This document shows, piece after piece, positions 27,555 through 31,199 of a stretch of DNA of 64,000 nt (position 1 is its first letter; the number at the start of each line of letters is the position of its first letter). The translations under genes and the position numbers were made by a program. This DNA comes from an uncultured Solirubrobacteraceae bacterium (GTDB lineage: Bacteria; Actinomycetota; Thermoleophilia; Solirubrobacterales; Solirubrobacteraceae), in contig CADCVR010000001.1 in the NCBI GenBank assembly GCA_902806205.1, positions 1 through 64,000 of the forward strand, given 5' to 3'. A model generated the notes under the pieces. It searched no databases and had not been told where the DNA came from. It saw nothing but the letters and a program-made list of their open reading frames with translations.

Positions 27555-28346
27555 ATGAAGAGACTGCTGAGAACTCTGGCTGCCGGGGCGGCGCTGTCGG
27601 CCGTCGCCGCGGCGCCGGCCGCCGCGAGCCACTCGTGGAACAACTACCACTGGGCACGCACGGCCAACCCGTTCACCCTCCAGGTGGGCGACAACGTCCT
27701 CGGTGACTGGGACACGCACCTCAGGACGGCCAACGGGGACTGGTCGGCGTCGGCGGTCATGGACACCCCGACCGTGCCCGGCACCTCCAACCGGCGCTGC
27801 TCGATGACCGCCGGCACCGCCCAGGTCTGCAACGCCAAGTACGGCAACAACGGCTGGCTGGGCCTCGCGAGCATCAACCTCAGCGGCTCCCACATCATGC
27901 AGGCCTCCGCGAAGATGAACGACACGTACTTCGCCGGCGCGACCTACAACAACCCCAACGAGAAGCTGCACGTGATGTGCCAGGAGATCGGCCACACCTT
28001 CGGCTTGGGCCACACCAGCGAGGACGGCTCCTCGCAGAACACGTGCATGGACTACTTCTCCAACACCGGCACCGCCGCGACGAGCACCACCAGCACCCAT
28101 CCCAACCAGCACGACTACGACCAGCTGGCGGCCATCTACAGCCACACCGACAGCATGAGCACGCTGGCCTCGTCCCCCGCGACGTCAGCCGGGATGGCCG
28201 GCCGCTCCGACGCACGCGCCTACCGCACCCAGCGCACCGACCGCGGTAACCACAGCGAGATCATGGAGCACTTCTCCGACGGGACCACGCGGATCACCGA
28301 CGTGCTCTGGGCCGACGGCCCCCGGCCGACCGTCGACCGGGGCTGA
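27555..28346 (+). CDS. Secreted metzincin-like protein with QExxH in place of HExxH
   Basis: 263 aa with a signal peptide (MKRLLRTLAAGAALSAVAAA, cleavage near residue 25). The motif MCQEIGHTFGLGH aligns with the metzincin HExxHxxGxxH except that the first zinc-ligand His is Gln143; E144, H147 and H153 are kept. A Met-turn-like CMDY follows at 164-167. Cys142 and Cys164 may form a disulfide, as may Cys82/Cys92. About 90 hydrophilic residues follow (STTSTHPNQHDYDQLAAIYS, then a charged tail). Metzincins such as matrixins are zinc endopeptidases. With a changed ligand it could be an active variant family, a binding protein, or inactive. Confidence 0.78.
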   Translation: MKRLLRTLAAGAALSAVAAAPAAASHSWNNYHWARTANPFTLQVGDNVLGDWDTHLRTANGDWSASAVMDTPTVPGTSNRRCSMTAGTAQVCNAKYGNNGWLGLASINLSGSHIMQASAKMNDTYFAGATYNNPNEKLHVMCQEIGHTFGLGHTSEDGSSQNTCMDYFSNTGTAATSTTSTHPNQHDYDQLAAIYSHTDSMSTLASSPATSAGMAGRSDARAYRTQRTDRGNHSEIMEHFSDGTTRITDVLWADGPRPTVDRG

Positions 28347-28390: not shown

Positions 28391-28663
28391 CTAGCCCCCG
28401 GCGACCGCCGGGAGGATCTGCACTTCCGCGCCGGCCGGGACCGGGGTCTTCAGGCCGTCGCCGAAGCGGATGTCGTCCCCGTTGACGTAGACGTTGACGA
28501 AGCGCCGCAGCGTCCCGTCGGCGTCGGCGATGCGGTCGCGCAGCTCCGCGTGCAGCGCGTAGAGCGCGTCAAGTACCGCGCCGACCGTCTCACCCTCGAC
28601 GCGGACCTCGCCGTCGCCGCCGGCGGCCGCGCGCAACTGCGTGGGCAGCTTGACGACGGCCAT
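28391..28663 (-). CDS. MoaD/ThiS-family sulfur carrier protein
   Basis: 90 aa, ATG at 28663 overlapping the stop of the upstream PLP enzyme (TGATG). The ubiquitin-like fold is indicated by VKLPTQLRAAAGGDGEVRVE, LRDRIADADGTLRRFVNVYV and NGDDIRFGDGLKTPV. It ends in AVAGG, the free C-terminal Gly-Gly that is adenylated and thiocarboxylated in this family. No molybdopterin or thiamine gene is nearby. Being cotranscribed with a threonine-synthase-like gene under a SAM riboswitch suggests it donates sulfur in a methionine-related pathway. Confidence 0.88.
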   Translation of the reverse strand: MAVVKLPTQLRAAAGGDGEVRVEGETVGAVLDALYALHAELRDRIADADGTLRRFVNVYVNGDDIRFGDGLKTPVPAGAEVQILPAVAGG

Positions 28664-29922
28664 CAGACCGCCGCGCCGGCGAACTCGGCCTCGAAGGCCT
28701 CGTAGGTCGGCTCGATCGTGTGAACCGCGAACGAGTCGCGGACCGCGTCGAGGGTCTTGAGCCCGTCGCCGGTGATCACGAGCACCACCCGCTCGCCGGG
28801 GTCGATCGCGCCCTGCTCGGCGAGCTTGGCCAGCGTGGCCGCGGTGGTTCCGCCGGCGGTCTCGGTGAACACCCCGGTGGTCTCCGCGAGCAGCCGGATC
28901 CCGCGGCGGATCTCGTCGTCGGTGACCTGCTCGATCGAGCCGTTCGTCGCACGGGCGACTTCGAGGGCGTACGGCCCGTCGGCGGGGTTGCCGATCGCCA
29001 GCGACTTGGCGATCGTGTCGGGCTTGACGGGCTGGCAGAAGTCGCGGCCGAGCTCGAAGGCGTGGGCGACGGGGTTGCAGCCCACGGCCTGCGCACCGTT
29101 GAACGTGGGGCGCGACCCGCTGATCAAGTTGATCTCGCGCCACTCCTCGAAGCCCTTGTCGAGCTTCGTGAACAGCGAGCCCGAGGCGATCGGCGCGACG
29201 ATCCGGTCCGGCGTGCTCCAGCCGAGCTGCTCGGCGATCTCGTAGGCCAGCGTCTTGGAGCCCTCGGCGTAGTAGGGGCGCATGTTGACGTTGACGAAGG
29301 CCCACCCCTCGCGCTCGCCCGAGAGCTCGACGCAGAGGCGGTTGACGTCGTCGTAGTTGCCCTTGACCGCCACGACGTTCGTGCCGTAGACGCCCGTGGC
29401 GAGGATCTTCTGCTCCTCCAGGTTCGACGGGATGAACACGTAGCTCGGCAGGCCGAGCGCGGCGGCCTGGGCGGCCACGGCGTTGGCGAGGTTGCCGGTG
29501 GAGGCGCAGGCCAGCGTCGTGAAGCCGAGCTCCTTCGCGCGCGCCGAGGCGACGCTGACGACACGGTCCTTGAAGGAGTGCGTGGGGTTCGCGGCGTCGT
29601 TCTTGACCCAGACCTCGCGCAGCCCGAGGCGCTCGGCCAGCCGGTCGGCGCGGATCAGGGGCGTGCACCCCGCGGGAAGCCCGCCGGCGGTCGAGTTGCG
29701 GCTCGCGGAACCGGGCTGGCCGCTTTCGAGCGGCAGGAAGTCGGCGTAGCGCCAGATGTTCTGTGGGCCGCCCTGGATCTTGCGGCGCAGCTCGCCGACG
29801 TCGTGGACGTCAGGAGCCGAGTAGGCGACCTCGAGCGGGCCGAAGCACCGCTCGCAGACGTAGCGTGCTTCCAGGGCGTACTCCGTCTTGCACTCCCGGC
29901 ACTTCAACGCGGTTGCGGCCAT
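28663..29922 (-). CDS. thrC: Threonine synthase-like PLP enzyme under SAM riboswitch control
   Basis: 419 aa. An N-terminal zinc ribbon (C8, C11, C23, C26) precedes a fold-type II PLP enzyme. The PLP lysine is K118 in NPTHSFKDR. CASTGNLANAVAAQAAALGL and the Gly-rich cofactor loop IASGSLFTK follow. Sequence motifs match threonine synthase, which converts O-phosphohomoserine to threonine. The start ATG at 29922 lies directly after a terminator-like hairpin and a SAM-I riboswitch, and the stop overlaps a MoaD/ThiS gene. That context fits methionine or homocysteine synthesis better than threonine synthesis, so an O-phosphohomoserine-dependent sulfhydrylase activity is a possible alternative. Confidence 0.85.
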   Translation of the reverse strand: MAATALKCRECKTEYALEARYVCERCFGPLEVAYSAPDVHDVGELRRKIQGGPQNIWRYADFLPLESGQPGSASRNSTAGGLPAGCTPLIRADRLAERLGLREVWVKNDAANPTHSFKDRVVSVASARAKELGFTTLACASTGNLANAVAAQAAALGLPSYVFIPSNLEEQKILATGVYGTNVVAVKGNYDDVNRLCVELSGEREGWAFVNVNMRPYYAEGSKTLAYEIAEQLGWSTPDRIVAPIASGSLFTKLDKGFEEWREINLISGSRPTFNGAQAVGCNPVAHAFELGRDFCQPVKPDTIAKSLAIGNPADGPYALEVARATNGSIEQVTDDEIRRGIRLLAETTGVFTETAGGTTAATLAKLAEQGAIDPGERVVLVITGDGLKTLDAVRDSFAVHTIEPTYEAFEAEFAGAAV

Positions 29923-29923
29923 G

Positions 29924-29957
29924 AAAAACGAAAACCTCCGGTCGGGTGGCGGAGGTT
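29924..29957 (-). terminator. Intrinsic terminator of the SAM riboswitch expression platform
   Basis: An 8-bp stem (AACCTCCG / CGGAGGTT) with a 9-nt loop is followed on the minus strand by TTTTCGTTTTT, running to 2 nt before the thrC ATG. Position and U-tract are those of a riboswitch-controlled terminator. It would form when SAM is bound and stop transcription into thrC-moaD. Confidence 0.8.
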
Positions 29958-29984
29958 CGCTTTGAGTCGAGGCGCGGAGCTCCG

Positions 29985-30092
29985 GCCACATCTGTCAGGA
30001 ATTGGCACCTTTCTCGCTGCTCGCGCTGACGCTTGCAAGTGGTTGCCGGGGTTTCGTCGGGCCAGTCCCTCCACCCCTCTGGATGTGTCCAG
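29985..30092 (-). ncRNA. SAM-I (S-box) riboswitch
   Basis: The minus-strand sequence contains the full S-box core: CCAGAGGGGTGG, AGGGACTGGCCCGACGAAAC, CCCGGCAACC, a variable P3/P4 arm, then AAAGGTGCCAATTCCTGACA. The closing helix P1 pairs ACACATC (around 30082-30088) with GATGTGG (around 29986-29992). These are the conserved K-turn, pseudoknot and ligand-binding elements of the class. It lies about 65 nt upstream of the thrC start and normally turns genes off when S-adenosylmethionine is plentiful. Confidence 0.96.
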
Positions 30093-30200
30093 CTATGTGA
30101 CCCGGCAGTGTAGCGGGTCGCCGTGACGCCGCAACCGCCGGTACACTGCTCACCCGAGAGCGCACCATGCCAGAGATCGCCGACGAGCCCCGAAGTTCCC

Positions 30201-31199
30201 GTGCCGAACCTTCCCAAGCCACCCCGCTTGCGGCGGCCGGACCGTGCGCGCTCCGGCGGCACCGCGCACGACTCAGAGCCTGAGCCGCGCGCCTACGAGG
30301 CCGTCGAGTTCGACGGCCTGCGGTGGATCAACATCGAGCGTCCCCGCCCGGCCGACCGTGCCTGGCTCGAGGAGCACTTCGACTTCCACCCGCTCGACTA
30401 CGAGGACGTCTTCTCGCGCAACCAGCGCCCGAAGGTCGACGAATACCCCGGGTACCTCTTCGTGGTCCTGCACTTCCCGGCCTACGACAAGAAGATCGGG
30501 CGCCTCAACCAGGCCGAAGTCGACATCTTCATCGGGCCGGACTACGTCATCACGCTCCCGAACGAGCCGATCCAACCGCTCGAATATCTCTACGAGCGCT
30601 GCCGCACGCGGGAGGAGGACCGCGAGCAGCTGTTCGCCAAGGGACCCGGCTACCTGCTCTACAAGATCGTCGACGGCTGCGTCGACGCAGCGTTCCCGAT
30701 GCTCGCCAAGATCGGCAACAAGCTCGAGAACCTCGAGGAGGACATCTTCGAGGGCCGTTCGAAGGCGATCGTCCGCGACCTCTCCAACGCCAAGCAGGAG
30801 ATCATCAACTTCCGCAAGATCACGCGCCCGCAGCGCGCCGCGCTGCGTGATCTCGAGCGCACCAAGCGCTACATCCCGGAGAACCTCGACATCTACTTCG
30901 ACGACATCAACGACGCGTCGGAGCGCATCTGGGACATGCTGGAGAACTACAAGGAGGTCGTCGAGGGGCTGGAGAGCACGAACGAGTCCGTGCTCACCCA
31001 CGAGGCCAACGACGTCCTGCGCCTGCTGACCGCGCTCAGCGCGGTGATCCTGCCGCTGACGCTGATCACCGGCGTCTTCGGGATGAACGTCAAGGTCCCC
31101 GGTGAGGCCGAGTTCTCCGGCTTCGTCGTCGTCATCGCCGTGATGCTCGCGCTCACCGGCGGCCTGATCTACGTCTTTCGCAAGCGCGGGATCTTCTAG
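30201..31199 (+). CDS. corA: CorA-family divalent metal ion transporter
   Basis: About 332 aa from GTG at 30201. The frame stays open to another GTG at 30123, inside the riboswitch promoter region, so the start is uncertain and no clear ribosome binding site is seen for either. A large cytoplasmic funnel domain (VEFDGLRWINIERP through the long helix with EGRSKAIVRDLSNAKQEIIN) leads to two C-terminal membrane helices. The first ends in the selectivity motif GMN (TLITGVFGMNVKVPG), and the protein closes with the basic YVFRKRGIF. CorA proteins import Mg2+ (sometimes Co2+ or Ni2+) as pentamers. Confidence 0.92.
   Translation: MPNLPKPPRLRRPDRARSGGTAHDSEPEPRAYEAVEFDGLRWINIERPRPADRAWLEEHFDFHPLDYEDVFSRNQRPKVDEYPGYLFVVLHFPAYDKKIGRLNQAEVDIFIGPDYVITLPNEPIQPLEYLYERCRTREEDREQLFAKGPGYLLYKIVDGCVDAAFPMLAKIGNKLENLEEDIFEGRSKAIVRDLSNAKQEIINFRKITRPQRAALRDLERTKRYIPENLDIYFDDINDASERIWDMLENYKEVVEGLESTNESVLTHEANDVLRLLTALSAVILPLTLITGVFGMNVKVPGEAEFSGFVVVIAVMLALTGGLIYVFRKRGIF

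What the first reader, a model, noticed from the sequence alone, without database searches (positions are those of the whole stretch)
28391..30092. SAM-I riboswitch controls a threonine synthase-like gene fused in operon to a MoaD/ThiS sulfur carrier
The sequence shows a complete SAM-I riboswitch, a terminator platform, then a threonine synthase-like PLP enzyme overlapping (TGATG) a ubiquitin-like protein ending in Gly-Gly. SAM-I switches regulate methionine and SAM genes. Switching off threonine synthesis in response to SAM makes little metabolic sense on its own. Mycobacteria have a parallel: CysM uses O-phosphoserine and the thiocarboxylate of CysO to make cysteine. By analogy (inference) this pair could make homocysteine from O-phosphohomoserine and a MoaD-type thiocarboxylate. 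That would be an O-phosphohomoserine sulfhydrylase route. The conservative alternative is a true threonine synthase whose expression balances the branch point at O-phosphohomoserine.
Basis: partly seen in the sequence, partly recalled or inferred. Interest (0 to 1): 0.78.

Follow-up and report, generated by a model that had tools for sequence, protein, structure and literature searches.

The report
SAM-switched MetM/MetO homocysteine synthase operon
A two-gene operon under an RNA switch that senses SAM (the cell's methyl donor made from methionine) very probably makes the methionine precursor homocysteine from a threonine intermediate, with sulfur handed over by a small ubiquitin-like protein; the route was first published in 2024, so this is a well-supported further case, not a new one.

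Summary
A SAM-I riboswitch (RF00162, 74 bits) and a terminator/antiterminator platform lie in front of a threonine-synthase-like PLP enzyme. Its stop codon overlaps (TGATG) the start of a 90-aa ThiS/MoaD-fold protein ending in Gly-Gly.

The same genome has a separate thrC beside hom and near thrB. It has no MetX and no MetA/HTS, and its only PF01053 enzyme is a cystathionine gamma-lyase. It has MetH, and one MoeZ-type E1 in a MoeZ-CysO-CysM-JAMM cluster. Among 119 genomes of the class, 25 of 29 without any PF01053 enzyme carry this gene. The same riboswitch class precedes metY in several relatives.

This is, however, the MetM/MetO pathway reported for Streptomyces by Hasebe et al. 2024, where metM also has an upstream SAM riboswitch (as cited in PMC12172450; the original was not available here). 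It is a new member of a known kind. The same arrangement recurs across Actinomycetota and in some Verrucomicrobia.

One correction: the riboswitch lacks the P4 hairpin. P4-less versions recur in three actinobacterial lineages, without the PK-2 pseudoknot that replaces P4 in SAM-IV. Enzyme activity was not tested.

The parts
29985..30089 (-). SAM-I riboswitch aptamer (P1, P2, P3; P4 hairpin absent)
   Evidence: RF00162 74.1 bits, gathering 44.4, E 1.7e-15; 10-nt J3/4-to-P1 linker instead of P4
29980..29989 (-). Antiterminator 5' strand GUGGCCGGAG (the P1 3' strand and its flank)
   Evidence: Pairs with 29946-29954; it forms spontaneously in the MFE of the transcript cut before the terminator 3' arm; covaries with its partner across relatives
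29946..29954 (-). Antiterminator 3' strand CUCCGCCAC, overlapping the 5' arm of the terminator
29933..29957 (-). Intrinsic-terminator hairpin; its 3' arm holds a GGAGG (29935-29939) that may be the ribosome-binding site of metM, so the hairpin may also mask translation
   Evidence: -15.5 kcal/mol, z -2.3; U-rich tail 29923-29934 read
28663..29922 (-). metM: threonine-synthase-like PLP enzyme, 419 aa, predicted O-phosphohomoserine-dependent homocysteine synthase
   Evidence: PALP PF00291 246.9 bits; TIGR00260 273 bits; MetM-type rather than ThrC-type residues; AlphaFold model pLDDT 86.5
28391..28663 (-). metO: ThiS/MoaD-fold sulfur carrier, 90 aa, C-terminus ILPAVAGG
   Evidence: ThiS PF02597 55.4 bits; NF041918 73.5 bits, cut-off 60

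Best explanation
This is a metM-metO operon. A MoeZ-type E1 encoded elsewhere in the genome adenylates and sulfurates the C-terminal Gly-Gly of MetO. MetM, a threonine-synthase paralogue, takes O-phosphohomoserine, eliminates phosphate on PLP and lets the MetO thiocarboxylate attack at C-gamma. Homocysteine is then freed from the carrier (probably helped by the JAMM protease) and methylated by MetH. A SAM-I riboswitch shuts the operon off: SAM stabilises P1, which frees the terminator; without SAM the P1 3' strand pairs with the terminator's 5' arm and transcription runs through. Shown here: gene structure, family membership, the riboswitch and its conserved alternative pairing, and the genomic gap that this enzyme fills. 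Inferred: the reaction, the identity of the E1 and the protease, and the sign of regulation.
For: Second ThrC next to hom, with thrB about 1.4 kb away on the same contig. No MetX match at E<=1e-30, no HTS match, and the only PF01053 protein is a cystathionine gamma-lyase (NF005758, 449 bits against a cut-off of 440); genome 97% complete. MetH present, 995 bits, just under the 1010.85 cut-off. A single ThiF/MoeZ-like E1, a CysO-like carrier, a CysM-like enzyme and a JAMM protein in one cluster. In the class, 60 of 119 genomes carry the gene at >=50% identity, and 25 of the 29 genomes without any PF01053 enzyme do (Fisher p 1e-5). The same riboswitch family sits in front of metY (often metY-metX) in G117, G114, G003, G015, G069 and G110 (coordinates). 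Positions that separate MetM from ThrC in the same class (R215, Y218, S222, S247-G248, S307, A309, T355) stay invariant out to Nitrospira, Aquificota and Verrucomicrobia. A carrier gene lies within 800 nt downstream in 77 of 81 named loci and a SAM riboswitch upstream in 64 of 80 scanned. Antiterminator complementarity covaries: 37 of 71 loci against 13 expected on permutation. Published precedent: MetM/MetO, with a SAM riboswitch at S. albulus metM (PMC12172450).
Against: No biochemistry on this protein. S. albulus MetM was not aligned directly. The cyanobacterial homologue (51.6% identical to MetM) makes threonine from O-phosphohomoserine and deaminates threonine in vitro, and did not raise methionine in vivo (PMC12172450), so some family members are not purely homocysteine synthases. 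Several metM genes of family f6, and G023, lack an adjacent metO. Some genomes carry metM together with MetX and PF01053 enzymes. The genome is a draft of 108 contigs, so absences are about 97% safe. The co-occurrence test ignores phylogeny.
Confidence: 0.9

Rival explanations
1. A true threonine synthase whose expression is tuned by SAM to balance the O-phosphohomoserine branch point; the carrier gene is incidental (for example for molybdopterin or tRNA thiolation).
For: TIGR00260 thrC cut-off is exceeded (273 against 167 bits). The closest solved structures are threonine synthases, the best full-length one being Arabidopsis ThrC solved with SAM (Z 47.6). A cyanobacterial homologue makes threonine in vitro.
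Against: A separate hom-linked ThrC exists. Shutting threonine synthesis off at high SAM would run opposite to the SAM activation of plant ThrC (established knowledge). Canonical homocysteine enzymes are missing. ThrC-invariant residues are replaced at many positions. The carrier is linked across phyla.
Confidence: 0.05
2. A homocysteine synthase that uses free sulfide rather than the carrier thiocarboxylate in vivo, the carrier being accessory.
For: Several metM loci lack an adjacent carrier gene.
Against: Overlapping reading frames here and a carrier within 800 nt in 77 of 81 named loci; the carrier C-terminus ILPAVAGG or close variants is strongly conserved; published precedent for the thiocarboxylate (Hasebe et al. 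2024, as I recall its abstract).
Confidence: 0.05

Closest known systems
MetM/MetO homocysteine synthesis of Streptomyces albulus (Hasebe et al. 2024, doi 10.1128/aem.01247-24; read only through PMC12172450 and memory)
   Same: ThrC-like enzyme, adjacent small sulfur carrier, upstream SAM riboswitch, O-phosphohomoserine as substrate
   Different: Another class of Actinomycetota (kin of Solirubrobacteraceae); overlapping reading frames; P4-less riboswitch; activity not measured here
CysM/CysO/Mec+/MoeZ cysteine synthesis of Mycobacterium tuberculosis
   Same: PLP enzyme plus Gly-Gly carrier thiocarboxylate and a phosphorylated amino-acid substrate; the window's genome also carries this system on contig 34
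   Different: CysM is a cysteine-synthase-family enzyme doing beta-replacement on O-phosphoserine; MetM is of threonine-synthase type and would do gamma-replacement on O-phosphohomoserine
Threonine synthase (ThrC)
   Same: Fold, PLP lysine motif SFKDR, substrate O-phosphohomoserine
   Different: Substituted active-site neighbourhood, carrier partner, SAM riboswitch; the genome has a separate ThrC
HcyS/HcyD-MetY route of Wolinella succinogenes (from memory)
   Same: Protein thiocarboxylate used to make homocysteine
   Different: Uses a MetY-type enzyme of another PLP fold and an O-acyl homoserine

Membership tests
MetM/MetO pathway | Threonine-synthase-like PLP enzyme distinct from the genome's own ThrC | tested here: met
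MetM/MetO pathway | Adjacent ThiS/MoaD-fold carrier ending in Gly-Gly | tested here: met
MetM/MetO pathway | SAM riboswitch upstream, as at S. albulus metM | tested here: met
   precedent in PMC12172450
MetM/MetO pathway | Fills the gap left by missing canonical homocysteine synthesis | tested here: met
   O-phosphohomoserine supply by ThrB
MetM/MetO pathway | Direct sequence similarity to S. albulus MetM | not tested
   The S. albulus sequence was not held; other Actinomycetes with the same riboswitch-metM-metO order (Nonomuraea, Actinomadura, Kribbella) match at 53-61%
MetM/MetO pathway | Makes homocysteine from O-phosphohomoserine and carrier thiocarboxylate | not testable with these tools
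   needs an enzyme assay
Threonine synthase (ThrC) | Passes the TIGR00260 cut-off | tested here: met
   273.3 against 167.1 bits
Threonine synthase (ThrC) | Keeps residues invariant in the ThrC paralogues of the same class | tested here: not met
   Many positions differ, e.g. R215, Y218, S222, S247, S307, A309, T355
CysM cysteine synthase | Passes the cysKM family cut-off | tested here: not met
   TIGR01136 44.6 against 344 bits
SAM-I riboswitch (RF00162) | Passes the gathering score with P1-P3 core | tested here: met
   74.1 against 44.4 bits
SAM-I riboswitch (RF00162) | P4 hairpin | tested here: not met
   Deleted in the Rfam alignment; 10-nt linker
SAM-IV riboswitch | PK-2 pseudoknot that accompanies loss of P4 | tested here: not met
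   P3-loop complementarity to the region after P1 is no better than shuffles over 33 P4-less RNAs

The most novel reading that the evidence does not exclude
The operon's switch belongs to a minimal, P4-less subclass of SAM-I riboswitch (P1-P2-P3 only, with a fixed linker of about 10 nt and no PK-2) that has arisen in at least three actinobacterial lineages in front of metM, and that still binds SAM and terminates transcription. In this genome both cysteine and methionine would be made through ubiquitin-like thiocarboxylate carriers sharing one E1 enzyme.
Probability: 0.5. Interest if true: 0.42.

Novelty: new member of a known kind. Interest (0 to 1): 0.3.

Why it matters
It indicates that the 2024 MetM/MetO route is the likely sole homocysteine source in a large part of the class around this genome (Thermoleophilia), where automatic annotation calls the enzyme threonine synthase and would wrongly report methionine auxotrophy. 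The riboswitch gives a built-in marker for finding the route in other genomes. The P4-less riboswitches offer a natural test of how little of the SAM-I scaffold is needed.

Tried and rejected
A PK-2-type pseudoknot in the window RNA (GCGCGAGC in the P3 loop against GCUCcGCGC after P1) looked attractive by eye; it is not shared by relatives, and the statistics show no excess, so a SAM-IV or SAM-I/IV reading was dropped. His115 (NPTHSFKDR) looked like a MetM signature within the class, but Acidimicrobiia members have Gly there. The sigma-70 and terminator scans found nothing; the terminator is outside their loop limit. The original MetM paper could not be read. In the literature searches I found no description of P4-less SAM-I RNAs, but these searches were limited.

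Full report
Observation. On the minus strand Rfam finds one SAM riboswitch at 29985-30089 (74.1 bits, gathering 44.4). It is followed by a hairpin AACCTCCG-N9-CGGAGGTT with a broken U tract that runs into an ATG at 29922. The 419-aa product is a PALP enzyme that passes the thrC model. Its TGA overlaps the ATG of a 90-aa ThiS-family protein ending ILPAVAGG. The flanking genes are convergent (27555-28346, +) and divergent (30123-31199, +), so the operon is just these two genes.

What the genome says. The window lies in a 3.38-Mb draft in 108 contigs, 97% complete; its closest named relatives are Solirubrobacteraceae MAGs (80% identity). A second ThrC lies on contig 61 directly after hom, with thrB about 1.4 kb further on. 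No MetX was found at E<=1e-30 and no homoserine transsuccinylase/transacetylase of the MetA kind. One good PF01053 protein exists, and it passes the cystathionine gamma-lyase equivalog cut-off, while all homocysteine-forming models are far below theirs. MetH is present. One contig carries a rhodanese-E1 (MoeZ-like), a CysO-like carrier, a CysM-like enzyme and a JAMM protein, the set known from mycobacterial cysteine synthesis (PMC3227635). MoeZR sulfurates several carriers there, so the single E1 here could serve MetO too (inference).

Survey. In 119 genomes of the class, 60 have the enzyme at 50% identity or more (counted by hand; G100, which has only a fragment at a contig end, and the split G085 are included). 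25 of the 29 genomes without any PF01053 match have it, against 35 of 90 with one (Fisher p 1e-5). Some genomes without a match were not printed and were assigned by elimination, and phylogeny is not corrected for. A SAM aptamer was found upstream of all 58 class loci examined, and a carrier gene follows in 49. In relatives the same riboswitch family precedes PF01053 genes, often followed by metX (G117, G114, G003, G015, G069, G110; coordinates). So the SAM-riboswitch regulon swaps metYX for metM-metO. In 81 named loci a carrier gene is within 800 nt in 77, and 64 of 80 scanned have the riboswitch: all Actinomycetota but one and some Verrucomicrobia, but no Nitrospirota, Nitrospinota or Aquificota.

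Enzyme. Against 21 ThrC paralogues of the same class, MetM differs at many otherwise invariant positions, and several of these (R215, Y218, S222, S247, G248, S307, A309, T355) remain invariant in 24 MetMs that include Nitrospira, Aquificota and Verrucomicrobia members. A model (pLDDT 86.5) matches threonine synthases best; Arabidopsis ThrC covers the whole length (Z 47.6, 2.2 A over 405 residues). Plant ThrC is activated by SAM (established knowledge), whereas here SAM should switch the gene off. This contrast argues for a methionine-side role.

Riboswitch mechanism. The transcript cut before the terminator 3' arm folds by itself into the antiterminator, with GUGGCCGGAG (29980-29989) paired to CUCCGCCAC (29946-29954); the longer transcript folds with P1 plus the terminator. 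The five nucleotides at the P1 3' flank find their exact complement downstream in 37 of 71 loci, against 13 on permutation and 6 on shuffling: GUGGC with GCCAC, GUGAG with CUCAC, GUGAC with GUCAC, GUGGG with CCCAC. This is good evidence for a SAM-OFF attenuator; the sign is inferred from the architecture. A GGAGG in the terminator 3' arm may also couple it to translation.

P4. The window aptamer has no P4. About 32 other metM aptamers lack it too: in Solirubrobacteraceae (and G087 of the same order), in family f6 of the class, and in Acidimicrobiia, mostly with a 10-nt linker (one search counts 34 in all, of which L144 is a regex artefact; L072-L074 match a GACG just before GATG, so their true linker is also about 10 nt). 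SAM-IV also lacks P4 but has PK-2 and P5 (PMC6890682). No PK-2 signal is present here.

Novelty. I recall from its abstract that MetM plus thiocarboxylated MetO turns O-phosphohomoserine into homocysteine; I could not read the paper itself. The case here is a further member, with lineage-wide genomic evidence and a reduced riboswitch.

Noticed in passing
window 29985-30089 (-); L008-L010, L012-L014, L016, L018, L020, L023, L072-L075, L136-L140, L146, L158-L159, L161, L164, L168-L169, L180, L186, L188, L191, L196, L206: SAM-I aptamers without P4, usually with a 10-nt J3/4-P1 linker and no PK-2, recur in three actinobacterial lineages in front of metM.
   Followed up: partly
L110 / L113 (G000 contig 34): The genome's CysO-like carrier ends in ...ILPAMAGGA, one residue beyond Gly-Gly, so it would need trimming (perhaps by the JAMM protein in the same cluster) before activation; MetO ends cleanly in Gly-Gly.
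   Followed up: no
L014, L067, L069, L070, L072, L074, L075, L204, L210: metM genes with no carrier gene within reach downstream; the sulfur donor there is unknown.
   Followed up: no
L170, L176, L178, L181, L187, L193, L200, L202-L204, L211, L214: Nitrospirota, Nitrospinota and Aquificota carry MetM-type genes, mostly with metO, but without a recognisable SAM riboswitch.
   Followed up: partly
L073 (G085 contig 1, 2108650-2109836): metM is split into two overlapping frames behind an intact riboswitch, in a genome that also has MetX and four PF01053 matches; possibly a decaying gene or an assembly error.
   Followed up: no
window 27555-28346 (+): Convergent gene for a secreted protein with a zinc-metalloprotease-like motif (HVMCQEIGHTFGLGHT).
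   Followed up: no
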